The translations under genes were made by a program, and so were the position numbers. Below are positions 650 to 32,419 of a stretch of 33,021 bases of DNA, piece by piece; the first letter of the stretch is position 1; each line of letters begins with the position of its first letter. This stretch comes from a virus. The stretch lies in IMG/VR virus record IMGVR_UViG_3300032050_000493, positions 1 to 33,021 of that record. One strand, written 5' to 3'. The notes under the pieces are model-generated. The model worked only from the letters and a program-made list of their open reading frames with translations, had not been told where the DNA came from and made no database searches.

Positions 650-792
650 TGCCGCTCATTAAAGACATTGGCAAAAAGGCATTCCAAAAGAATGTCAAAG
701 CTGAGATTGCTGCGGGCAAGCCAGTTAAGCAGGCCGTGGCTATTGCGTACTCAGTTAAGCGTGAGGCTGCAACCAAGAAGAAGAAGAAATAA
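649..792 (+). CDS. Small lysine-rich phage protein (47 aa, DUF6496-like)
   Basis: This gene is coupled to both neighbours by TAATG overlaps. The 47-residue product is MPLIKDIGKKAFQKNVKAEI followed by a GKPVKQAVAIAYSVKRE segment and a KKKKK tail. The G-K-P-x-K-Q-A-V-A-I-A signature is typical of very short phage proteins that I recall as related to DUF6496; the function is unknown. With the two preceding genes it forms a trio of positively charged polypeptides. Confidence 0.7.
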   Translation: MPLIKDIGKKAFQKNVKAEIAAGKPVKQAVAIAYSVKREAATKKKKK

Positions 793-2393
793 TGGCCACA
801 TTGTCAGATGTTTTGCGTGAAGCAAAATATGCGCCGCGCACAACCTTAGCCCAAACCCAAAAAAATTATGTTATGGGCATTGGCCCAACTGCCATGAAAA
901 ACCTTGCTAATCAAAGGGCGGACATAGATGCTGCGTTGGTTATGGGTGATGCGGGGTTACAAATAGGTAACAGAGAGGCGTTTGAGCGCCAAATTTCCGA
1001 AGTACCTAATGTGGCCGGTATGTTTATTGGCCCCAAGTCATCTGCCTGGAATAAACCTGCTTACGAAAAAGCCGTAGAAATGGAAAAGGCTGGGGCGCGA
1101 CCCTCTGATATTTGGCGCGAAACCATGACTGCCCGCGGCTTAGACAATAAATGGCGGCAAGAGATACCTGATTATGGCGCAGTATTGAATATGGAAAAAA
1201 TACCAAAAGCGCCTAATGAAATTGATTTAGCAAACAAATTATTATTACAACGAGGATTTATTCCACCAGAAAAGGTTGGTCTTTTAGGTGTGGGAAGTAG
1301 TGAAAATTTAATACCTGCAGCAGCCCAAAAAAAGGCTCTTGAAGATGCTAGATGGGAAATATTAACTAAACCAGCGCAACAAGTTCGTCTAACTTCTGCA
1401 TTGCAACATAATGCGCTTGAGGAGGCTTACCCTAATCTTGTTAACAATCTAAGAATTGCGCGTGAGACCCGTAAAGACATACGCGGAGCCTACGACCAAG
1501 AAAAGAAACTGGTTACAACTGGTGGTGCAACCCATATTGGCCAAACCGCAGACGAGCAAGCCAATGCAGCCAGATCAACATTGCTGCATGAAATCCAACA
1601 CGCTATCCAACAGACCGAAAACTGGGGGCGCGGTGGTAGTCCAGAATCTGCCAAACTAATTGCTCAAGCCCAAATTAAGTCTGAACTTGCGCCCTTGGCC
1701 ACCCCATTTGCGACTAACCGTAAATATTGGGACGATTACGGCGCAGCTGCTAGGTCAGAATACATGGTCCGGCTTGGTGACATTGCGACCAAAGAAAACA
1801 TCAAACCAAGAACTATTTACAATCTGCAAGATTGGTATGTATACGGTAATGATTACCGGCGTGAGGCTGGTCCACAACCTAAAAAGCCAGGCGCAGCCAG
1901 AGATGAATGGTTTAGGGGCGCGGCTCAATTTATTCAAGACCGTAAATTTTCATCCGATGCTAAGTATCAAGACCTGCCATATGACAACCTGCGAGACGCG
2001 AAAAACGCACAAAAACGGGCTATGACCCAGATCAAGAAAACCGATGAGGCTGCGCGTCAGTTTCAAGAATTAGGCGCAAAACAAAAACGATTTGACGAAT
2101 TGTCTGATACAGAGGCCTATAGACGGTTGGCCGGTGAGGCCGAGTCAAGATTGACCCAAGCAAGAGAAACGCTCAATATGAATGAGCGCCGAGAAAACTT
2201 TCCGTTTAATGAGCGATATGAAAGAACGACCAATTTAGGTATTAAAACCGTTACAAATCCTTTTGGATTGGATGTTCCAGCCAAAGAAACTGTTGCGTAT
2301 ACCCAATTTGGTGACCCATTAGCAATGTTTTTAAGTAGTAAACCTACCCAAGACCCATTACAGATGTTTATTGGACTTCCAAAGAGTCGATAA
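792..2393 (+). CDS. Large polyvalent-type protein with HEIQH metallopeptidase-like domain (LPD23-like)
   Basis: A 533-residue protein that overlaps the previous stop by one base. Residues about 95-130 carry an IWRETMTARGLDNKWRQEI segment, a common N-terminal module of phage polyvalent proteins. Residues about 200-290 match the LPD23-type pattern: L-x-x-A-L-Q-H-x-x-L-x-x-A-Y-P, then STLLHEIQHAIQQTE and WGRGG. The HEIQH at 266-270 has the HExxH spacing of zinc metallopeptidases. The C-terminal 150 residues are charged and probably helical. Polyvalent proteins are usually injected with phage or mobile-element DNA and act early in the new host; that role here is inference. Its position before the terminase also allows a virion role. 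The last 26 bases overlap a convergent small gene. Confidence 0.75.
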   Translation: MATLSDVLREAKYAPRTTLAQTQKNYVMGIGPTAMKNLANQRADIDAALVMGDAGLQIGNREAFERQISEVPNVAGMFIGPKSSAWNKPAYEKAVEMEKAGARPSDIWRETMTARGLDNKWRQEIPDYGAVLNMEKIPKAPNEIDLANKLLLQRGFIPPEKVGLLGVGSSENLIPAAAQKKALEDARWEILTKPAQQVRLTSALQHNALEEAYPNLVNNLRIARETRKDIRGAYDQEKKLVTTGGATHIGQTADEQANAARSTLLHEIQHAIQQTENWGRGGSPESAKLIAQAQIKSELAPLATPFATNRKYWDDYGAAARSEYMVRLGDIATKENIKPRTIYNLQDWYVYGNDYRREAGPQPKKPGAARDEWFRGAAQFIQDRKFSSDAKYQDLPYDNLRDAKNAQKRAMTQIKKTDEAARQFQELGAKQKRFDELSDTEAYRRLAGEAESRLTQARETLNMNERRENFPFNERYERTTNLGIKTVTNPFGLDVPAKETVAYTQFGDPLAMFLSSKPTQDPLQMFIGLPKSR

Positions 2394-4403: not shown

Positions 4404-6652
4404 TTATGGCAAACGACCAGCGTATACAAGACGCACAAAAATTCTTGAGATTCGCCAATGATGCGGACTCTTACAATCGCCAGGATGCCCTGGATGACCT
4501 TAAGTTCTCATCTGGTGATCAATGGCCAGTTGAGGTGCAGAACTCTCGAAACCTTGAGGCAAGACCCTGCTTAACGATTAACAAACTGGATGGCTTTATC
4601 CGCCAGGTCTGTAACCAGCAGCGCCAAGCCAGACCCCGCATGAAAGCGCACTCGATGAACTCGGCTGCCAACGCTAAAGTAGCGGACATCTTGACGGGCA
4701 TTTTTAAGCATATTGAGGTCAATTCGGACGCAGATACCGCCTACGATACGGCCTTTGAGTTTGCCGTACGCATGGGTTGGGGTTATTGGCGGGTTCTTAC
4801 CGACTACACACGGGCAGACTCGTTTGACCAAGAAATCTACATTAAACCCATTGCCAACCCTTTTACTGTTTACTATGACCCTAACAGTCAGATGCCAGAC
4901 GGCTCAGATGCCGAATGCTGCCTGATTACTGAGGTAATGAGCAAGAAAGAATTTAAGGCCCAATACCCTAACGCAGACGATGGCGGCAACTTTAATATGC
5001 GTGGTACTGGCGATGCGGACGCTGATTGGATTATGAAAGATGACATTCGCATAGCTGAGTGGTGGTATACCGAGCGCAAAAAGACCAAATTGCTCATGCT
5101 CTCAGACGGTACGCAAGTCTATAAAGAGGACGCACCCAGCGATGACATGATGATGGCAGCCGGTATTGAGGTGGTTGCCGAGCGTGAAACCATGCGCAAA
5201 ACCATCAAATGGGCCAAGCTAACCGGCTTACAAATCCTTGAGGAATCTACTTGGATTGGTAAGTACATCCCCATTATTCCCGTCTACGGCCAGCAACTGG
5301 TGGTTGACGATAAGCGCAAGAAGTACGGCATTGTGCGTATGGCTAAAGACCCGCAGCGGATGTACAACTACTGGCGTACTGCCTTAACTGAGTCGGTTGC
5401 TCTCGCGCCCAAGGCTAAATGGCTATTGGCAGAAGGACAAGACGAAGGCCATGAGAATGAATGGAACTTGGCTAACATCAAAGCCACGCCAGTATTGCGT
5501 TACAAGCAAAAAGACATTGAGGGACAACCCGCGCCGCAGCCAACCAGACTGCAACCAGAGCCACCAGCTGCCGGAATCGTTGAAGCCACAAGCGCTATCA
5601 ACAATGACCTGCAGACCGTAGTAGGGATATTTGACCCAAATATGATGGCCCAAGGCAATATGTCTGGTAAGGCTATTCGCGGTCAGCAGATGCAGATTGA
5701 TATGTCGAACTTCCATTACTACGACAATCTGACCCGTTCCCTCAAGCAAACTGGGCGCGTAATCCTAGATTTAATCCCCAAGATTTACGATAAAGAGCGG
5801 GTCATGCGGATTATTGGCTACGATAACCAGCCCGAAATGGTAACGATTAACCAGCGCGCCGTGGATGAAAGCGGTACAGAAAAGATACTTAACGATGTAA
5901 CTGTGGGCGAATACGATGTTTACATGGATACAGGCCCAGGCTACCAAAGCAAGCGCCAAGAGGCAGTCGAGTCTATGGTCCCGCTCTTGCAGGCTAACCC
6001 TGAACTATTCCAAGCTGCGGGTGATTTAGTGTTCCGCAACATGGACTTCCCAGGCGCAGATGTTATTGCTGACCGCCTAGCTGCTATGAACCCATTGGCT
6101 AAGATTGACGAGAAATCGGATATTCCGCCACAGGTCCAAATGCAGTTGATGGCCAGCCAAAAGATGGTTGCCGATATGCAACAACAGATTGCGGCCTTGA
6201 CCTTGAACCTGCAACACCAAACCGATGTGCAGCGTATGAAAGAAGAAGGCCAGACCAAGCGCAAACTCATGGATGTTACCTCTAGGGCGTACAACACCGA
6301 GACCATTAATGAGGCTAAAGTCAATCAAACCAACATGAAAGCAGTAACCGACCAAAACCGGACCGAGTTAGATGCTATTACCAAACTGTTACTAAAGGGC
6401 ATGGACTCACGCGCTTTGCAGCAAGAAATGGCCCGCAGAGATGCGGAACAAGGCCAAGTTGCCTCGTTTGCTGAGAGCGAAGTAAATATGAATGAGTCAC
6501 CATTTTTGCGTGAAGAAATGGCGATTGCCCAGCAACCTATGGTGAACCCTGGAATAGATGATCAAATGGCAGCGCAGTTTGCAGCACAAGAAATGCAACC
6601 GCAGCCGTTAGAGCAACCTGCAATCCCTGGCGTACCAATGGGGCCTCGTTGA
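4391..6652 (+). CDS. Portal protein (P22 gp1-like)
   Basis: A protein of about 750 residues, close to the 725 of P22 gp1. The N-terminal region has the P22-portal pattern DLKFSSGDQWP, RPCLTINKLDGFIRQVCNQQ and RPRMKAHSMNS, then a VRMGWGYWRV segment. The long C-terminal third is rich in Gln and Met with heptad-like helices (VQMQLMASQKMVADMQQQIA), matching the barrel of long P22-like portals. It forms the dodecameric ring at the capsid vertex through which DNA is packaged. Three in-frame ATGs lie at 4391, 4400 and 4406; the one at 4400 forms an ATGA overlap with the terL stop and may be the real start. Confidence 0.92.
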   Translation: MDGMIMANDQRIQDAQKFLRFANDADSYNRQDALDDLKFSSGDQWPVEVQNSRNLEARPCLTINKLDGFIRQVCNQQRQARPRMKAHSMNSAANAKVADILTGIFKHIEVNSDADTAYDTAFEFAVRMGWGYWRVLTDYTRADSFDQEIYIKPIANPFTVYYDPNSQMPDGSDAECCLITEVMSKKEFKAQYPNADDGGNFNMRGTGDADADWIMKDDIRIAEWWYTERKKTKLLMLSDGTQVYKEDAPSDDMMMAAGIEVVAERETMRKTIKWAKLTGLQILEESTWIGKYIPIIPVYGQQLVVDDKRKKYGIVRMAKDPQRMYNYWRTALTESVALAPKAKWLLAEGQDEGHENEWNLANIKATPVLRYKQKDIEGQPAPQPTRLQPEPPAAGIVEATSAINNDLQTVVGIFDPNMMAQGNMSGKAIRGQQMQIDMSNFHYYDNLTRSLKQTGRVILDLIPKIYDKERVMRIIGYDNQPEMVTINQRAVDESGTEKILNDVTVGEYDVYMDTGPGYQSKRQEAVESMVPLLQANPELFQAAGDLVFRNMDFPGADVIADRLAAMNPLAKIDEKSDIPPQVQMQLMASQKMVADMQQQIAALTLNLQHQTDVQRMKEEGQTKRKLMDVTSRAYNTETINEAKVNQTNMKAVTDQNRTELDAITKLLLKGMDSRALQQEMARRDAEQGQVASFAESEVNMNESPFLREEMAIAQQPMVNPGIDDQMAAQFAAQEMQPQPLEQPAIPGVPMGPR

Positions 6653-6683
6653 CAACTATCGAAAAACAGTTTCTAATAGATTT

Positions 6684-6710
6684 AACCTACCGATGGGTTC
6701 ATCGGGTTTA
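6684..6710 (+). terminator. Intergenic hairpin between portal and scaffold genes
   Basis: CCGATG at 6690-6695 pairs with CATCGG at 6700-6705 around a GGTT loop, followed by GTTTATT. The T run is short, so this could be a weak terminator that tunes expression or an mRNA-stabilising hairpin ahead of the highly expressed scaffold and coat genes. It fills most of the only sizeable gap in the head block. Confidence 0.4.
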
Positions 6711-6726
6711 TTCTTGGAGTTAATCC

Positions 6727-7653
6727 ATGTCCGATGCAGAAGTAGTGCAGGAACCAGCAAGGAAACAAGCTGCGAACCTGGTAACAAATGAGAATTTAGC
6801 TGAGTTTAATGCACAAAAACTTGGTTTAGCCACTCAGGAAACTCCAACTGAGGCCGCAGAAGCGGAGCCGGTTGTTGAGCAAGAGCGGAGTGAACCAGAG
6901 GCAGAAACAGAGGCTGCTGCAGGTGAAAAGAAGCACAACCCGAAACTTGAGAAGCGGTTTTCAGAACTGACCAAGCAGCGCGAAGCGGCCCGCCAAGAAG
7001 CGGATCGTGAGCGTACGGCTCGTGAGGCTCTTGAGGCGCGATTGAGGGACATGGAAGCTAAGGCTAATCCGCCAAAATCGGAAGAACCAGACCCTAAACC
7101 AGACCCATCGCAATTTAATGATGCCCTAGAGTATGCTGAGGCTCTGGCCGAGTGGACTACTGATCGAAAGATGCGGGAGCGGGATCAAGCAGAACTTGCT
7201 CGTAAAGTTGAGGCGGAACAGTCGCGGATGCGACAGAAGTTCCAAGAACGACTAGATAATGCGAAACAAGATTTGCCGGATTATGAGGAAATGATTGCGT
7301 CAAGCGATGTCTCGGTGTCACAACCGGTCACCGATGCAATTATTGAGAGTGATGTAGGCCCACAAATCCTATATTACTTAGCCGAAAATCCAGAGTTCGC
7401 TCGTGATTTGGCGGATAAATCCATCACTTCACAACTCCGTGCCATCGGGCGTTTAGAGGCTAAATTTGAGAAATCAGAGCCAACTAAACCGAGCGTAAGA
7501 GAACCTGTTGCGAAGAAGTCAAATGCTCCGGCACCGATTAACCCATTGAAAGCCGGTGGTAATCCTAGTGATATTGCTTTGGATTCCGACCGTAAGTTTC
7601 ATGGCACCTACCAGCAATGGAAAGCTGCAAGGGCCTCTGGGAAGATTAGATGA
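6727..7653 (+). CDS. Scaffolding protein (P22 gp8-like by position and features)
   Basis: A 308-residue, highly charged and probably almost wholly helical protein, almost the same length as P22 gp8 (303). The N-terminal 70 residues are Glu/Ala-rich. Residues about 75-115 form a strong coiled coil (LTKQREAARQEADRERTARE). The C-terminus ends in a short basic helix (YQQWKAARASGKIR), as expected for a coat-binding scaffold tail. It sits between portal and coat genes, the standard scaffold position. It would direct procapsid assembly and then leave the shell. The ribosome site TTGGAGTTAATCC precedes the ATG. Confidence 0.85.
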   Translation: MSDAEVVQEPARKQAANLVTNENLAEFNAQKLGLATQETPTEAAEAEPVVEQERSEPEAETEAAAGEKKHNPKLEKRFSELTKQREAARQEADRERTAREALEARLRDMEAKANPPKSEEPDPKPDPSQFNDALEYAEALAEWTTDRKMRERDQAELARKVEAEQSRMRQKFQERLDNAKQDLPDYEEMIASSDVSVSQPVTDAIIESDVGPQILYYLAENPEFARDLADKSITSQLRAIGRLEAKFEKSEPTKPSVREPVAKKSNAPAPINPLKAGGNPSDIALDSDRKFHGTYQQWKAARASGKIR

Positions 7654-18621: not shown

Positions 18622-19971
18622 ATGGCAGTTAATATAAAACCAGACATCTCATTAAGCGCTAAACCACCAACAATGATGACATTGCCGGAAATGGTTAACA
18701 TGGCTCGTAATGCGCAAGCATACCAGCGTGAAAGAGAAATATTCCCTGAATTGGTACAACAAGCTAAAACACAAACGCAACAATCCCAATTTACCTTAGA
18801 TAAAGATCAAACTGCTGGCATTATGTCTTTAGTTGGTGGTTATCGAAATGACCCTCGAATTAATAGTGGAGACGCTAACCAAGCCGCAGAGGCAATGCAA
18901 GAAATCCGCTCTAAAGCCGTGGCTATTGGAATTCCTGAAAAACGAGTAGACGATTTAATGCGCATGGGTAACGCAATTGCGTTGCGCAATCCCAAAAACC
19001 TTGGCCAATATTTTGATAATGTAATCCAATCTCAGATTGGACCGTCTGGCCAACAAGCATTACAAACACCGCAAATCGTAAGTTCGGGCGGTCAGTCTGG
19101 CATATTCCGTGGCGGCCCTGCAACCGTAACAACATTGCCATTACCTGGAGCCGCTTCTTCGCCAGCGCCTACAGGCGTAACTCCAGCAGATATGACTGCT
19201 CCCATACTACCAAAACCAGCAGCTGCTCCGGCTGCAGGTCCAGCGTCAACATCAATGGTGCAGCCAGATACGGGCCGTTTGCCTTTAACTTATCCGGTGC
19301 GTCAAGCCGGCGTACCTTTTGCTGCGCTTCCGCAAGAAGAAACAGACCGCACCGCTGGCAGCCAATACCGAAATGGTTTAGTGCAGCGTCAGTCTGAACT
19401 GACAACGGCACGGCGTAATTTACAAGAAGTTGTTAAGACCGCACAAAAACTGCAAGAAGAATCTGTATTACCAGAAACAGGCCCTGTTGGTGCAGTTAAA
19501 AGAAAATTTGCTGATATTGTTGGTGATCCAACTTATAAACAATTATCTAAAGACCTGGCTAATGTGCAGATTTCTAACATTAAAGCCGTTGGTGGCTCAT
19601 TAGATACGGTTGGCGGTCAACAATTAATTCGCATGGCAAGTGGTGACGAGACATTCCCACCAGATGTATTGCTAAGTATTGCCCGCCGCGCCGATGCCGA
19701 TATTACCAATCTTGACATGATGGCAACCGGAATGCAGAGACATACCCAAAAATTTGGTGATGCTAACGCTAAACGATTCCAGCAGATGTGGTCATCAAAC
19801 GCAGACTCTCGTATTTTTGAAATTATGAATATTGCGCGTGATGTTAAAGATGTTAATAAACGCAAGGAATTAACCGACAAGTTGCTTGGTGATATGGATG
19901 ACAACCAACGCAAAGACCTGTATCGTAAATACAACAATTTAGTAAAATTAACAAATTCAGGTGATTTGTAA
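18622..19971 (+). CDS. Internal virion / DNA ejection protein (P22 gp20-like role)
   Basis: 449 residues. Residues 1-145 are helical and charged. Residues about 150-240 are Pro/Ala/Thr-rich and probably disordered (SSPAPTGVTPADM). The C-terminal 200 residues are again helical, with ELTTARRNLQEVVKTAQKLQ and KRKELTDKLLGDMDDNQRKD. The two-ended helical plan around a flexible linker suits a protein stored in the capsid and extruded with DNA. No enzyme motif is seen. It ends with TAATG overlapping the next start. The function is inferred from neighbours. Confidence 0.65.
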   Translation: MAVNIKPDISLSAKPPTMMTLPEMVNMARNAQAYQREREIFPELVQQAKTQTQQSQFTLDKDQTAGIMSLVGGYRNDPRINSGDANQAAEAMQEIRSKAVAIGIPEKRVDDLMRMGNAIALRNPKNLGQYFDNVIQSQIGPSGQQALQTPQIVSSGGQSGIFRGGPATVTTLPLPGAASSPAPTGVTPADMTAPILPKPAAAPAAGPASTSMVQPDTGRLPLTYPVRQAGVPFAALPQEETDRTAGSQYRNGLVQRQSELTTARRNLQEVVKTAQKLQEESVLPETGPVGAVKRKFADIVGDPTYKQLSKDLANVQISNIKAVGGSLDTVGGQQLIRMASGDETFPPDVLLSIARRADADITNLDMMATGMQRHTQKFGDANAKRFQQMWSSNADSRIFEIMNIARDVKDVNKRKELTDKLLGDMDDNQRKDLYRKYNNLVKLTNSGDL

Positions 19972-22352
19972 TGCAAGACATTGGCCAACTTATATTAGGT
20001 GGCTCAAAACCGCCATCCCAGCAACCGTCTAAAGATAGTTTTCGTTTTGAAAATTTGCAACCCACACAGGTGCAAATGGCGGTAAAACGGTTTACTGATA
20101 TGGGATATAACCCTAATCGATTACAAGAGATATTAACTACTCCTGAAAAATTTAATAATTACCCATTAGAGGTTCGTAAACAGTTTTTTGAACTGTCCTC
20201 TGGATCGCAGCCAGCAATGGCTAGGCCGTACACTAACGAGCCCGTAACCACAGAGATAACAAATAAACCGGCCGTTGCGCAACCCACTATGCGCCAAGCT
20301 GTTGCCGACCCTATTGGTGACATGATTTTAGGAAAACCAGTAGAAGTTAAGACAACCGAGCCACCAGCCCGTAAAGTTGGCAAAGTTAAAGATATGAGCG
20401 AGGCCAGCCCATTAACCCAGTTTGGTCGTACTGCTGCTAGTTTTTATGATGCAACCATTGGCAGCGTTGTTCCAGGGATTGTAGAACCAGTTACTTATGC
20501 AGGAGCCCGTGCAATTGGCAAAACGCCAGAGCAGGCTAAACAAATAAGTACGGCAGCTGCTGCGCCCTTTGAGTCTGGTATGGGCAAGACTTTTGGCGTA
20601 ACAGAAACTCCAGAATATCAAAGCGAGGCAACTCGCCGCTTGTTTAATTTTGTTGGTGAAAATTTCCAAAAGGGCGCTGCGTGGATTGCTGAAAAAACAG
20701 GATTACCGGCTACCGATATTGAAAACATGATGGGAACTGTTGCAGCCGGTGGTGGCGTAAAAGCTGCGCCAGCCGTACAACGCGGAATCGTTAAGGGTGC
20801 AGAAACCGTAGAAACTGCTTTAGGAACTGCAGTACCAAAAGCCCCAGAGGCACCTAGAGTTGAACCAACTTTAGCCGGCAAACCTAAAGTAACTTATGCA
20901 GAGTTTCAGGCTCAATTACAAAACAAACAAGGTGGAACGGCTGCTACATTACCACCAGCGCCAAAAATACAAACCCCAACAATGCCTGCACCAACCAATA
21001 CGCAGCCATTCCCAGAAGTTAAGTACGCACAAAAGGGCAGCGTAAATCTGCCAGAGCAAGAACAACGCAAGCAAATATTGGCTCGTGTTGGCTTAGAAAA
21101 CGCCCGTCAATCCTCTATTTTGGGTGACGGTTTTGCTGCGGCTAACGAGTTTCAGACTAGCAAAGTAGACGCTCCCGTAGGCCAGCTTTACAGAGATACA
21201 CTAGCCAATGAGCGGGCTACATTAGAAAACTTTGGCCAAAAAATTGTTGAGCGCACGGGCGGAACTTTAGGCCTTGATGAAACTTCTTTATATGACCGCG
21301 GCACACGAATTGCACGGCCTTTTGATGATTTTAAGAATGTACTGCAAACTCAAATGGATCAATCGTATGCCCAAGCTAAAAAAGTAGCTGGAACGCAGCC
21401 AGCGGTTATACCAAGCGACCTACAGAAATTCTTAGATACAAATTCTAACTTTACTGTAAACGACAGTTTTATGTCTTTGCGCCGCGGGGTTGAGGCTCAT
21501 TTGAAAGAAAATGATTTACTTGATGCAAACGGCAAAGTAAAACCAATGACAGTAGAGCAGGCCGAAGGTTTGCGTAGATACATTAATTCGAATTGGAATA
21601 ATGAGCGCTCTGGAATTATTGGCCGCCTAAAAGACAAAATTGACAATGATGTCACTAAGGTTGCTGGCGAAGATGTATACAAAAAAGCCAGAGACATTCG
21701 TACCAAAATTGCTCGCTTGTTAGATGATCCAAAAGGCGTAGCCAAGATTATGGATTACGATCCACAATCCCCAATGAATCGCGCCGTACCGTTTGAAAAG
21801 ATTGCCTCAACCGTGGAGCGGATGGATGTAGACCAGCAGCGGCATTTAATTAAACTGTTAAAAGAAATGCCAGACGAATTACGGCCCCAAGCAGATGCAG
21901 CAATTGCAGAAATTAAAGCCCAGTTTGCTAATCGCATATTGCAAGAGGGCTCTAAAAACAAGGGTCAATGGAATGCCGGCAATATTACAAAATACTTAAA
22001 TGACAACAATCGCAAACTTGGCGTATTGATGGAAGATAAAGAATTGGCCCAGATGGTTAAAGACTTGCATGATGCTGGCCATTTGGTCAAATATGACGCG
22101 TCCTACCCTGGCGCAGCAATACAGGCTCACAATTTAATTCGATTGGGCGCGGCACCATTATTGGGAACTTTAGGAACCTCAGTAGGCGGAGCGGTTGGAG
22201 GTGCTTTTGGCGGTGTGCCAGGCGCTGGAGTTGGAGCGACTGTTGGCGGTATGTATGGCGCAAAGAAGGGTGTGGCAATGGCAGAAAAATCTGCATTAAA
22301 ACGCGCTCAGAAAAAAATGGTTCCCCTCAAAGATGTTGGTAAAGGACAATAA
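19971..22352 (+). CDS. Internal virion / DNA ejection protein (P22 gp16-like role)
   Basis: 793 residues, the largest of the ejection trio. A short N-terminal motif (DSFRFENLQPTQVQMAVKRF) is followed by a Pro/Thr-rich linker, then repeated helical regions. Near residues 725-770 lies a glycine zipper, GTSVGGAVGGAFGGVPGAGV, flanked by Leu and Ala, a classic membrane-inserting feature, ahead of a basic C-terminus (SALKRAQKKMVPLKD). Such proteins help form the conduit across the cell envelope. There is no peptidoglycan-hydrolase motif that I can see. It is placed between the second ejection gene and the collar fibre. Confidence 0.68.
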   Translation: MQDIGQLILGGSKPPSQQPSKDSFRFENLQPTQVQMAVKRFTDMGYNPNRLQEILTTPEKFNNYPLEVRKQFFELSSGSQPAMARPYTNEPVTTEITNKPAVAQPTMRQAVADPIGDMILGKPVEVKTTEPPARKVGKVKDMSEASPLTQFGRTAASFYDATIGSVVPGIVEPVTYAGARAIGKTPEQAKQISTAAAAPFESGMGKTFGVTETPEYQSEATRRLFNFVGENFQKGAAWIAEKTGLPATDIENMMGTVAAGGGVKAAPAVQRGIVKGAETVETALGTAVPKAPEAPRVEPTLAGKPKVTYAEFQAQLQNKQGGTAATLPPAPKIQTPTMPAPTNTQPFPEVKYAQKGSVNLPEQEQRKQILARVGLENARQSSILGDGFAAANEFQTSKVDAPVGQLYRDTLANERATLENFGQKIVERTGGTLGLDETSLYDRGTRIARPFDDFKNVLQTQMDQSYAQAKKVAGTQPAVIPSDLQKFLDTNSNFTVNDSFMSLRRGVEAHLKENDLLDANGKVKPMTVEQAEGLRRYINSNWNNERSGIIGRLKDKIDNDVTKVAGEDVYKKARDIRTKIARLLDDPKGVAKIMDYDPQSPMNRAVPFEKIASTVERMDVDQQRHLIKLLKEMPDELRPQADAAIAEIKAQFANRILQEGSKNKGQWNAGNITKYLNDNNRKLGVLMEDKELAQMVKDLHDAGHLVKYDASYPGAAIQAHNLIRLGAAPLLGTLGTSVGGAVGGAFGGVPGAGVGATVGGMYGAKKGVAMAEKSALKRAQKKMVPLKDVGKGQ

Positions 22353-29643: not shown

Positions 29644-29744
29644 TTGCCTATTCTGCTCAAACCCCGTCATTAATGGACTTTTCGTGGTTTATTTTGGTTG
29701 TTGCTATTTTGGCTTGTTTAGCTATTTGGTTGAGGGATAAATGA
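29640..29744 (+). CDS. Single-span membrane micro-protein (34 aa)
   Basis: The product begins MIAYSAQTPSLMDFSWFILV, continues VVAILACLAIWL and ends RDK, a single membrane helix with a short polar start. It overlaps the preceding stop and the following start, each as ATGA, and so sits in the operon as a coupled gene. No function recognised. Confidence 0.55.
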   Translation: MIAYSAQTPSLMDFSWFILVVAILACLAIWLRDK

Positions 29745-30121
29745 CAGACTTTGAAGAATTTTGGAAAACCTACCCACGCCGTGTGGCCAAGGGCGATGCG
29801 CGTAAGGCTTGGAAACAAACTGAGGGTATTCGCCCGCCTCTGCCGGAACTGTTGGACGCTATTCGGCAACAAATCCGCTCAGACCAATGGCGCAAGAATG
29901 ATGGCCAGTTCGTATGCTATCCCGCCACATGGTTACGCCAAGAGCGGTGGTCTGACGAATTAAAAGTGACCTTGCCTGGTGTGGTTGACGGCAAGGAATG
30001 GCATGAGACATGGCCCGGAATTGTGGCCAAAGGCAAAGAATTAGGCATTTTGGAGAGCCAGTTTGACCAGCCGTATTTGTTTAAAGCTGCGGTATTGCGC
30101 GGATCGGTCAAGGCCGCATGA
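29741..30121 (+). CDS. Replication-associated protein fragment-like (phage replication protein C-terminal domain)
   Basis: 126 residues. The start DFEEFWKTYPRRVAKGDARK with AWKQ, and the later QFVCYPATWLRQERWSDEL, match the C-terminal domain of many phage replication and helicase-loader proteins (F-W-x-x-Y-P-R-K plus P-x-x-W-L-x-Q-x-R-W). Here the domain stands alone without the usual N-terminal winged helix, so it may work with a host helicase or with the iteron array 900 bases upstream. Its stop overlaps the dpdA-like start as ATGA. The replication role is a family-based inference. Confidence 0.7.
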   Translation: MTDFEEFWKTYPRRVAKGDARKAWKQTEGIRPPLPELLDAIRQQIRSDQWRKNDGQFVCYPATWLRQERWSDELKVTLPGVVDGKEWHETWPGIVAKGKELGILESQFDQPYLFKAAVLRGSVKAA

Positions 30122-30855
30122 TCCATTATCACGGCTTACCAATAACCCCGGCCACGGTTGCTAACTATGCAGTACAAGCAGGTCACGCATTTGTGTCGTT
30201 TGCGCACCCTGACCAGGTTGGGACGGCCATAGAAGTTTGCCAATCGTTTGCTTTAGACAATGGTGCCTTTAGCGCCTGGAAATCAGGAAAACCCATGAAA
30301 GATTGGACCCAGTTTTACGATTGGGCATTAAATCTTAAAAAAGTGCCATCGTGCGATTTTGCCGTGATTCCCGATGTTATTGACGGTACTGAATCGGACA
30401 ACGATGCTTTGCTAAAAGATTGCCCATTACCGCATTGGTTTGGCTCTCCGGTATGGCATTTGCATGAATCCCTTGAAAGACTTGAGCAGCTGGCCAATAC
30501 CTATGTACGGGTTTCTTTGGGCAGTTCTGGTGAATATGCCACGGTTGGCACAACTGCTTGGTGGTCTAGGATGGGCGCAGCAATGCGGGTTATTTGTGAT
30601 GATATGGGTAGGCCAATTTGCAAACTGCATGGACTTAGAATGCTTGACCCCGCCGTTTTTACTAGGTTTCCATTTAGTTCAACTGATAGCACCAATATTG
30701 GTAGAAATGTAGGAATTGATAAACATTGGAAAAATGGTAACTATCCACCGCCCACCAAAGAGGCTAGGGCGCAAGTTATGCGGGCGAGAATTGAGTCACA
30801 AAATGCACCAGCAACATGGAATTTTATGCAAATAGAACAGGATGGTTTATTTTGA
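30118..30855 (+). CDS. dpdA: DpdA-like DNA-guanine transglycosylase (7-deazaguanine DNA modification)
   Basis: 245 residues. The tRNA-guanine-transglycosylase-like pattern is visible: SFALDNGAFSAW with D47 in the position of the substrate-binding Asp of TDSGGF; IPDVID; PVWHLHESLERLEQLA; YVRVSLGSSGEY; KLHGLRM; and RFPFSSTDSTN with D190 in the likely nucleophile position. This order fits phage DpdA-family proteins, which exchange guanine in DNA for a preQ0-type base and so protect it from restriction enzymes. The queD-like gene follows with a four-base overlap and makes an intermediate of the same pathway. queE, queC and folE are absent, so the host must supply those steps. The exact base made cannot be read from the sequence. 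Confidence 0.75.
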   Translation: MIHYHGLPITPATVANYAVQAGHAFVSFAHPDQVGTAIEVCQSFALDNGAFSAWKSGKPMKDWTQFYDWALNLKKVPSCDFAVIPDVIDGTESDNDALLKDCPLPHWFGSPVWHLHESLERLEQLANTYVRVSLGSSGEYATVGTTAWWSRMGAAMRVICDDMGRPICKLHGLRMLDPAVFTRFPFSSTDSTNIGRNVGIDKHWKNGNYPPPTKEARAQVMRARIESQNAPATWNFMQIEQDGLF

Positions 30856-31211
30856 AGTTAACTCAAACATTTTTTTTTGATGCGGCGCACACCTTAGACA
30901 GAACGGTCAATGTTTACGACCATCTAAAATCTAAAAACATACATGGCCATACCTATCATGCCAGCATTTCTATAGAGGGCGAGCCAGGTGAAAACGGTAT
31001 GGTTAGGGATTTTGGCGATATTAAACACGCCGTAGATGCCATTCGTTATGCTCTGGACCATGAATTTTTAGACAAAATTCCTGATTTGGGGCCGCCAACA
31101 CTTGAAAATCTTTGCTTTTTTATTGCAAAAAAACTTAAAAATATTGATGTTTGCGAGGTTTCTGTTGAACGCAAAGCGGTTGGCGATAAATGCACATTAA
31201 CGGTTAAATAA
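30852..31211 (+). CDS. queD: QueD-like 6-carboxytetrahydropterin synthase (Cys to Ser)
   Basis: 119 residues from a TTG at 30852 that overlaps the dpdA stop (TTGA); AGGATGG lies before it. The ATG at 30816 would add 12 unrelated residues and a 40-base overlap. Zinc ligands are present: FFDAAH (H13) and IHGHTYH (H31, H33). So are MVRDFGDIK, the DH pair in YALDHEFL (D69, H70) and the substrate Glu in VSVERK (E106). In E. coli QueD the catalytic Cys lies four residues before the HGH; here that position is Ser27. The enzyme would convert dihydroneopterin triphosphate to 6-carboxytetrahydropterin, the second step to preQ0. Activity with Ser is uncertain. Confidence 0.82.
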   Translation: MKLTQTFFFDAAHTLDRTVNVYDHLKSKNIHGHTYHASISIEGEPGENGMVRDFGDIKHAVDAIRYALDHEFLDKIPDLGPPTLENLCFFIAKKLKNIDVCEVSVERKAVGDKCTLTVK

Positions 31212-31826: not shown

Positions 31827-32066
31827 ATGAAAAAGATGAAACGCCGACCACGGCTTGCGCAAGATATTTTGTCCTTGCTTGAGCAAAAACCCAACATTAC
31901 GCAAGCTGAGATTGCAAAAGAACTGCTGGCCAAACCCCATTCTATTAAAGCGGTATTATGGAAATTAGTGCATCAACAGAATAAAATTGTTGCTACAAAA
32001 GGCGCAAAAGCAGATAAAATGACAGGGCCGAAGGTCATTAATATGTACTGTTTGAAGGAATTATGA
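31827..32066 (+). CDS. Small winged helix-turn-helix protein
   Basis: 79 residues. A basic start (MKKMKRRPRLAQDI) leads to a winged HTH: LLEQKPNITQAEIAKELLAK, then HSIKAVLWKLVHQQNKIVAT, with a beta wing ending in MYCLKEL. It is a likely DNA-binding regulator of the late switch or of the early operators. The ACTGTTTATT before its ATG resembles half of the GTAAAC-x-GTTTAC operator. Its stop overlaps the next start. Confidence 0.65.
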   Translation: MKKMKRRPRLAQDILSLLEQKPNITQAEIAKELLAKPHSIKAVLWKLVHQQNKIVATKGAKADKMTGPKVINMYCLKEL

Positions 32067-32419
32067 AAGACATCGAAGCATTCTCGCTGGCATTACTTAA
32101 CTCTGCAACCTGCGCTCATTTGCAGCATTGGCAGACCAAAAGCTATGCGCAGCATAAGGCCTTGGCAAAATACTATAACGCCATACCAGACCTTGTAGAC
32201 CAACTGGTTGAATCTTGGATGGGTAAGTATGGCCCAGTAGGCGATTTTGAAGAAGAATTTGAGATAGAAAAAGACCCCATCAAATATTTTAAAGCCCTAC
32301 AAAAGTATGTAAAAGAAAACCGTAAACACTTGCCAAAAGACACCGAATTACAGAATACTATTGACGAAATTACCGATTTAATCGACTCTTTGCTGTATAA
32401 ACTGCAACAACTCTCATAA
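32063..32419 (+). CDS. Helical bundle protein (DUF5856-like, ferritin-like plan)
   Basis: 118 residues in four helices. The first carries LALLNSATCAHLQHWQTKSY, then AQHKALAKYYNAIPDLVDQL. The repeated H-x-x-H-W-x-T-x-S-Y-A-x-H pattern is typical of DUF5856-type proteins, which have a Dps/ferritin-like four-helix layout. The middle is acidic (GDFEEEFEIEKDPIKYF). Function in phages is unknown. It is coupled to the HTH gene by a four-base overlap and is followed by AAGGAACCC before the next gene. Confidence 0.7.
   Translation: MKDIEAFSLALLNSATCAHLQHWQTKSYAQHKALAKYYNAIPDLVDQLVESWMGKYGPVGDFEEEFEIEKDPIKYFKALQKYVKENRKHLPKDTELQNTIDEITDLIDSLLYKLQQLS

What the first reader, a model, noticed from the sequence alone, without database searches (positions are those of the whole stretch)
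30118..31211. Minimal two-gene 7-deazaguanine DNA modification module in a small podovirus
A compact DpdA-family transglycosylase overlaps a QueD-like gene by four bases. Other preQ0 genes are missing, so the phage would top up one step and borrow the rest from the host. Such a pair in a P22-like genome of 33 kb is a streamlined anti-restriction system and predicts that the virion DNA contains a modified guanine.
Basis: partly seen in the sequence, partly recalled or inferred. Interest (0 to 1): 0.72.

Follow-up and report, generated by a model that had tools for sequence, protein, structure and literature searches.

The report
Two-gene phage guanine-swapping DNA cassette
A small uncultured phage carries two coupled genes, one that probably swaps guanines in its DNA for a modified base and one that boosts the host's supply of that base; relatives fill the second position with an importer or a tailoring enzyme instead, so this is a widespread and newly recognised layout of a known phage anti-restriction strategy.

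Summary
A 245-aa gene (30118-30855) overlaps a 119-aa QueD-like gene (TTG start, 30852-31211) by four bases. The first is a DpdA-family transglycosylase: PHROG 887 at E 6e-69, 32% identical to the DpdA of Salmonella phage 7-11 (whose DNA contains dADG), with a TIM-barrel model. No FolE, QueE, QueC or transporter gene lies in the 33-kb contig, a P22-like podovirus.

Relatives turn this into a system. In the 80 nearest contigs, the slot coupled to dpdA holds a QueD-like gene (44), a queuosine-precursor (YhhQ/Vut_1) transporter (20), or an 80-aa protein (8, two alongside the transporter) whose model matches archaeosine synthase QueF-Like. Each partner is almost always found beside this DpdA. Partners were acquired several times and in either gene order.

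The QueD has Ser where QueD's signature Cys (CxxxHGH) should be. The same Ser form is the only PTPS/QueD gene in 19 of 21 Ser-type genomes of the Variovorax family, usually beside queE. It is therefore probably a working host-derived enzyme, not a dead one.

Best reading: DpdA inserts a host-made 7-deazaguanine into phage DNA, and QueD draws host precursor into that pathway. Neither the base nor the modification is shown. New variant of a known kind.

The parts
30118..30855 (+). DpdA-family (TGT-like) DNA 7-deazaguanine transglycosylase, 245 aa
   Evidence: PHROG 887 'queuine tRNA-ribosyltransferase' E 6e-69; 32% id, E 3e-36 to Salmonella phage 7-11 DpdA; hhalign 97% to CAjan DpdA; AF2 TIM barrel pLDDT 84; invariant D47, D86, H114, E117, H171, R174, D190 in 43 sequences down to 45% id
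30852..31211 (+). QueD-like (COG0720/PTPS) protein of the Ser type, 119 aa, TTG start; predicted 6-carboxytetrahydropterin synthase
   Evidence: Pfam PTPS E 1.3e-24; QueD equivalog TIGR03367 77.4 bits, below its 89.25 cut-off; S27-x3-HGH in place of C-x3-HGH; clade with chromosomal QueDs of the Variovorax family
30852..30855 (+). TTGA overlap: start codon of queD and stop codon of dpdA; predicted translational coupling
   Evidence: sequence; -4 spacing conserved in 37 of 44 QueD-bearing relatives
30118..30121 (+). ATGA overlap: start of dpdA and stop of the upstream gene (same operon)
   Evidence: sequence; upstream gene 29741-30121 is replication-initiation/primosomal-like, phrog_9327/270

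Best explanation
A two-gene 7-deazaguanine DNA-modification cassette that relies on the host. The host makes the precursor base (preQ0 or a close relative) for its own tRNA queuosine. The phage DpdA exchanges guanines in phage DNA for that base (inferred from homology). The co-translated QueD (Ser type, taken from a Burkholderiales-like host) raises flux at the branch point where dihydroneopterin triphosphate leaves folate synthesis and becomes 6-carboxytetrahydropterin; host QueE and QueC finish preQ0 (inferred). The partner position is exchangeable: relatives have an importer of queuosine precursors or a mini QueF-like tailoring enzyme instead. The likely purpose is resistance to host restriction (inferred from published DpdA phages). 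Shown here: gene identity, coupling, co-occurrence, exchangeability, purifying selection, and a bacterial lineage whose only QueD has the same Ser motif. Not shown: enzyme activities, the base inserted, its abundance, and protection.
For: DpdA identity. Conserved coupling of DpdA and QueD. Of 57 Ser-type QueD loci listed, down to 38% identity, only one short contig (L160) lacks an adjacent DpdA. The same slot holds Vut_1, whose only NCBIfam matches are the queuosine-precursor/preQ0 transporters, below cut-off, or an 80-aa protein whose top 13 PDB structure matches are all archaeosine synthase QueF-Like. Reciprocal searches: 80 of 80 transporter relatives and 77 of 80 mini-QueF-L relatives are adjacent to this DpdA. 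A true QueE sits in the operon in L011 (TIGR04508, 327 bits against a 240 cut-off), and a QueE homologue is found by tblastn in L152. Ser-type QueD is probably functional: it is chromosomal beside queE in 20 of 21 genomes, the sole PTPS gene in 19 of 21, with tgt detected in 20 of 21 and above cut-off in 19. Phage QueDs sit among host Ser-type QueDs in the tree in more than one place. DpdA-carrying bacteria have QueC. YhhQ/COG1738 transports preQ0 (PMC5372724). DpdA is needed for DNA modification and protection in phage CAjan (PMC6884629).
Against: No Pfam or NCBIfam family recognises the DpdA, and sequence searches of the PDB find no TGT. Foldseek ranks generic TIM barrels above archaeosine TGT (1j2b rank 44, TMq 0.51). 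The QueD fails the CxxxHGH signature (signature in PMC5041015) and the TIGR03367 cut-off. Nine of the 80 nearest DpdA contigs have none of the three partners, including L009, whose surroundings are nearly the same as the window's, so the partner is dispensable. Published modification in the same DpdA subfamily is very low (7-11: 50 dADG per 10^6 nt; PMC6884629). The host of this phage is unknown.
Confidence: 0.74

Rival explanations
1. The TGT-like protein acts on tRNA (host or phage) rather than on DNA, and the cassette tunes queuosine-type tRNA modification during infection.
For: Annotated as 'queuine tRNA-ribosyltransferase' in public phage records; QueD and the transporter would equally feed a tRNA pathway.
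Against: Closest tested homologues (7-11, CAjan) modify DNA (PMC6884629). The protein is 245 aa with no CxCxxC zinc motif of bacterial tRNA TGTs (sequence; family knowledge). Bacteria with the related Ser-type QueD already have their own tgt, and the window has no tRNA genes.
Confidence: 0.1
2. The Ser-type QueD-like protein does a different tunnel-fold reaction (for example folate-side pterin chemistry, PTPS-III-like) and its linkage to DpdA reflects another need.
For: It lacks the cysteine that defines QueD; PTPS subfamilies differ in product and in the residues of this motif (PMC5041015); TIGR03367 cut-off not met.
Against: It also lacks the PTPS-III ExxHGH and PTPS-II CxxxxxHGH motifs (sequence). 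Its cellular relatives are the only PTPS gene in genomes with queE beside it and a tgt. Other contigs pair the same DpdA family with ordinary Cys-type QueD (L184-L193, L206, L208). QueE occurs in the operon of L011 and L152.
Confidence: 0.1
3. QueD and DpdA are unrelated passenger genes that happen to be adjacent in this phage lineage.
For: Early regions of such phages are mosaics of small cassettes; some close relatives lack QueD.
Against: Near-exclusive reciprocal linkage of three different 7-deazaguanine partners to this DpdA, in both gene orders and from several acquisitions.
Confidence: 0.03

Closest known systems
Phages with DpdA and a full preQ0 pathway (CAjan, Rosebush; Hutinet et al. 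2019, PMC6884629)
   Same: DpdA homologue and a QueD-family gene; in CAjan also a putative preQ0 transporter in the cluster
   Different: They carry FolE, QueD (Cys type in CAjan), QueE and QueC and modify about 30% of G; the window has only DpdA and a Ser-type QueD, coupled by a 4-base overlap, in a P22-like podovirus
'DpdA-only' phages (Salmonella phage 7-11, group 3 of Hutinet et al. 2019)
   Same: Same DpdA subfamily (32% id, E 3e-36); rely on host preQ0
   Different: 7-11 is reported without any preQ0 or G+ gene; it showed only 50 dADG per 10^6 nt
Isolated phages AB3P2 (Acinetobacter) and PEAT2 (Pectobacterium)
   Same: Same DpdA family, directly coupled to a partner gene
   Different: Partner is the transporter family (phrog_4899 / VUT), not QueD; PEAT2 has the opposite gene order
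Chromosomal queE-queD operons of the Variovorax family (e.g. Variovorax guangxiensis, G040)
   Same: QueD with S-x3-HGH, 44-53% identical to the window QueD
   Different: Chromosomal, beside queE (and queC in one case), with no DpdA

Membership tests
DpdA (DNA 7-deazaguanine transglycosylase) | Homology to an experimentally linked phage DpdA | tested here: met
   7-11 DpdA 32% id E 3e-36; CAjan DpdA tblastn E 5e-10 and hhalign 97%; PHROG 887 E 6e-69
DpdA (DNA 7-deazaguanine transglycosylase) | TIM barrel with invariant acidic residues at the C-terminal ends of the strands (as TGT) | tested here: met
   AF2 model pLDDT 84; invariant D47, H114, G135, H171 and D190 lie at strand ends, D86 just after one. 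Equivalence to TGT D102/D156/D280 is inference
DpdA (DNA 7-deazaguanine transglycosylase) | Specific structural similarity to TGT over other TIM barrels | tested here: inconclusive
   1j2b at rank 44, TMq 0.51; other TIM barrels rank higher by E-value
DpdA (DNA 7-deazaguanine transglycosylase) | 7-deazaguanine found in DNA, lost on deletion | not testable with these tools
   needs virion DNA
QueD (PTPS-I, 6-carboxytetrahydropterin synthase) | PTPS/COG0720 domain | tested here: met
   Pfam PTPS E 1.3e-24; solved QueD/PTPS chains matched
QueD (PTPS-I, 6-carboxytetrahydropterin synthase) | CxxxHGH signature cysteine (PMC5041015) | tested here: not met
   S27-x3-HGH in the window and in all 44 QueD-bearing near relatives, so it is not filed as canonical PTPS-I; the works-like claim rests on host-operon evidence
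QueD (PTPS-I, 6-carboxytetrahydropterin synthase) | NCBIfam equivalog TIGR03367 cut-off | tested here: not met
   77.4 bits against 89.25
QueD (PTPS-I, 6-carboxytetrahydropterin synthase) | Zinc histidines and DH / E catalytic residues | tested here: met
   H13, H31, H33, D69, H70, E106 invariant in alignment A2; roles from family knowledge
QueD (PTPS-I, 6-carboxytetrahydropterin synthase) | Serves the queuosine/preQ0 pathway | tested here: inconclusive
   cellular Ser-type relatives beside queE, sole PTPS gene in 19 of 21 genomes, tgt present; activity not assayed
PTPS-III / PTPS-II | ExxHGH / CxxxxxHGH motif | tested here: not met
   sequence SKNIHGH
QueF-Like (for the alternative 80-aa partner in relatives, not in the window) | QueF-L tunnel fold | tested here: met
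   AF2 pLDDT 94; top 13 PDB hits all QueF-Like, best E 6e-5, TMq 0.60-0.72
QueF-Like (for the alternative 80-aa partner in relatives, not in the window) | Sequence-profile match | tested here: not met
   no QueF match in Pfam at E <= 5 or among PDB sequence hits

The most novel reading that the evidence does not exclude
A previously unrecognised class of minimal phage DNA-modification cassettes: one small DpdA plus one exchangeable, translationally coupled partner (Ser-type QueD for supply, YhhQ-like transporter for import, or an 80-aa QueF-Like for tailoring the base). Different phages using the same DpdA would thus carry different guanine derivatives depending on the partner and the host. 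It also implies a working QueD subfamily that uses serine in place of the signature cysteine.
Probability: 0.55. Interest if true: 0.72.

Novelty: new variant of a known kind. Interest (0 to 1): 0.6.

Why it matters
It suggests how small phages can use 7-deazaguanine DNA modification without carrying a whole pathway, by taking the base from the host's tRNA pathway and adding a single gene at the supply, import or tailoring step. It gives testable functions to two gene families listed as 'unknown' in phages (phrog_4899 and phrog_37496), explains many 'queuine tRNA-ribosyltransferase' genes in lambdoid and P22-like prophages, and points to a Ser-type QueD in Burkholderiales that current signatures miss. 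Isolated phages with the same DpdA (AB3P2, PEAT2, and several Salmonella and Escherichia phages) make it testable now.

Tried and rejected
(1) Cys-to-Ser in QueD as decay or as a phage-specific new function: rejected as the leading idea once the same motif appeared in chromosomal queE-queD operons where it is the only PTPS gene. (2) PTPS-III/folate reading: motif absent. (3) PDB sequence searches with the DpdA, single sequence and profile: nothing useful. (4) Foldseek on the DpdA model: generic TIM barrels, not decisive. (5) Pfam and profile-sequence searches for the 80-aa partner: nothing; only the structure search placed it. (6) Radical-SAM Pfam scan over 38 contigs found only L011 and missed the L152 QueE seen by tblastn, so a Pfam scan undercounts QueE. 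(7) A short DpdA-like query typed by guess found nothing and is not used. (8) The host could not be named; QueD kinship suggests Burkholderiales but does not prove it. (9) Caveat on counts: the search for related loci keeps the best 80 and uses motif patterns, so proportions describe near relatives, not all phages; the canonical-QueD scan used a pattern containing the Cys. (10) One row in the QueD tree (L238) was mis-extracted and is ignored.

Full report
OBSERVATION. The window holds a 245-aa ORF at 30118-30855 and a QueD-family ORF ending at 31211. The QueD start that fits its relatives is TTG at 30852, so the TGA stop of the first gene and the TTG start of the second share TTGA. The first gene itself starts inside the stop codon of the gene before it (ATGA, 30118-30121). 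The pair lies in an operon of small early genes: replication-initiation-like upstream (29741-30121), HNH-like and RusA-like downstream. The contig encodes P22-type terminase, portal, scaffold, coat, Hc3, DNA ejection and Erf proteins. It is a linear IMG/VR record and may be incomplete. Within it there is no QueC, FolE, radical-SAM protein or Vut_1 transporter.

THE 245-aa PROTEIN. Pfam and NCBIfam are silent, but PHROG 887 'queuine tRNA-ribosyltransferase' matches over 1-236 at E 6e-69. It is 32% identical (E 3e-36) to the DpdA of Salmonella phage 7-11 and related to CAjan DpdA (E 5e-10; hhalign 97%). Hutinet et al. 2019 (PMC6884629) showed that CAjan loses dPreQ0 when dpdA is deleted and found dADG in 7-11 DNA at 50 per 10^6 nt. 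An AlphaFold2 model from 43 homologues is a confident TIM barrel (pLDDT 84). Its invariant residues D47, H114, G135, H171 and D190 sit at the C-terminal ends of strands, and D86 just after one, where a TIM barrel has its active site. The PDB structure search finds TIM barrels in general, archaeosine TGT 1j2b among them (rank 44, TMq 0.51). So the fold agrees with TGT but does not single it out; the DpdA assignment rests on sequence.

THE QueD-LIKE PROTEIN. It is a clear PTPS/COG0720 protein and scores below the QueD equivalog cut-off. The QueD signature is CxxxHGH (PMC5041015); here and in all 44 QueD-bearing near relatives it is SxxxHGH, while the zinc histidines and the D69-H70 and E106 residues are invariant. 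I first took this for loss or change of function. But searching the bacterial family of Variovorax found the same SxxxHGH form in 21 of 61 genomes, next to queE in 20 of those 21. In 19 of the 21 it is the only PTPS gene, and tgt is detected in 20 and above the cut-off in 19. In the tree, host and phage Ser-type QueDs form one clade (99/93). The window's phage group is nearest host L260 (94/67), a second phage group, mostly with the opposite gene order, is nearest host L264 (95/96), and L152 stands apart. So Ser-type QueD is probably an active host enzyme captured by phages more than once. Activity was not tested.

THE CASSETTE. In the 80 nearest IMG/VR contigs the slot next to dpdA holds QueD in 44, a Vut_1 protein in 20 (two of them with the 80-aa protein as well), the 80-aa protein alone in 6, nothing recognised in 9, and one is cut off. 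Overlaps of 4 bases recur with all three partners. Vut_1 is the YhhQ/COG1738 family; YhhQ transports preQ0 in E. coli (PMC5372724). The only NCBIfam matches of these proteins, below cut-off, are the queuosine-precursor and preQ0/preQ1 transporters. The 80-aa protein has no sequence match, but its model (pLDDT 94, beta-beta-alpha-alpha-beta-beta) has archaeosine synthase QueF-Like as all of its first 13 PDB matches (best E 6e-5, TMq 0.60-0.72). Reciprocal scans: all 80 transporter relatives lie on the 3' side of this DpdA within 400 bases; 77 of 80 mini-QueF-L relatives are adjacent to it, usually on its 5' side; and of 57 Ser-type QueD loci listed, only L160, on a short contig, has no DpdA beside it. 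A further QueD type without Cys or Ser (L084, L176-L181) and ordinary Cys-type QueDs (L184-L193, L206, L208, L087, L111, L115) are also paired with this DpdA. QueE is added in L011 and L152. Isolates AB3P2 and PEAT2 have the transporter version.

HOW IT WORKS (inference). The host makes preQ0 for tRNA queuosine: all 23 searched bacterial genomes with a related dpdA have QueC and 22 have a PTPS gene. The phage DpdA puts a 7-deazaguanine into phage DNA. The partner removes the bottleneck: QueD diverts dihydroneopterin triphosphate from folate to the deazaguanine route, the transporter imports precursor, or the QueF-Like protein changes the base. The pay-off expected from published DpdA phages is restriction resistance. 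Low published levels in 7-11 warn that modification may be sparse; a partner gene may raise it.

NOVELTY. DpdA phages with a full pathway and DpdA-only phages are known (PMC6884629). QueD and QueE are known as common viral auxiliary genes (PMC9301287). I found no held paper describing the two-gene DpdA cassette with an exchangeable partner, the 80-aa QueF-Like partner, or the Ser-type QueD; papers outside the held library were not seen. I rate it a new variant of a known kind.

Noticed in passing
L056:4307-4549, L066:6735-6974, L088:5756-6004 (phrog_37496) and about 110 IMG/VR matches: 80-aa phage protein of 'unknown function' whose predicted structure matches archaeosine synthase QueF-Like and which sits beside DpdA in 77 of 80 loci; invariant C12-P13 and H49-E50.
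   Followed up: yes
L061:4664-5143, L072:3874-4377, L079:6735-7208 (phrog_4899): About 160-aa Vut_1/YhhQ-family transporter on the 3' side of DpdA in 80 of 80 loci; listed as unknown in PHROGs.
   Followed up: yes
G040:C23:513665-514009 (L256) and L260-L280, L289: Chromosomal QueD with Ser in place of the signature Cys, beside queE, in the bacterial family of Variovorax; usually the genome's only PTPS gene.
   Followed up: partly
L281-L288: In the same bacterial family, other genomes carry long ORFs (mostly about 380-450 aa) with an HGHTY PTPS region next to queE, possibly a multi-domain QueD form.
   Followed up: no
L009 around 6001-6738: A contig with nearly the same gene order as the window but without QueD: a natural queD-less version for comparison.
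   Followed up: partly
L010:415-1254 and others (cluster 24): PAPS-reductase-like gene (phrog_424) in 12 of the DpdA loci; could be a companion of another DNA modification or a defence trait.
   Followed up: no
window 32063-32419: DUF5856 protein (Pfam E 7.5e-27; phrog_858 'starvation-inducible transcriptional regulator').
   Followed up: no
window 792-2393, 18622-19971 and 19971-22352: Large ORFs (533, 449 and 793 aa) with no PHROG match at E 1e-5; the last two lie where ejection/tail proteins are expected.
   Followed up: no
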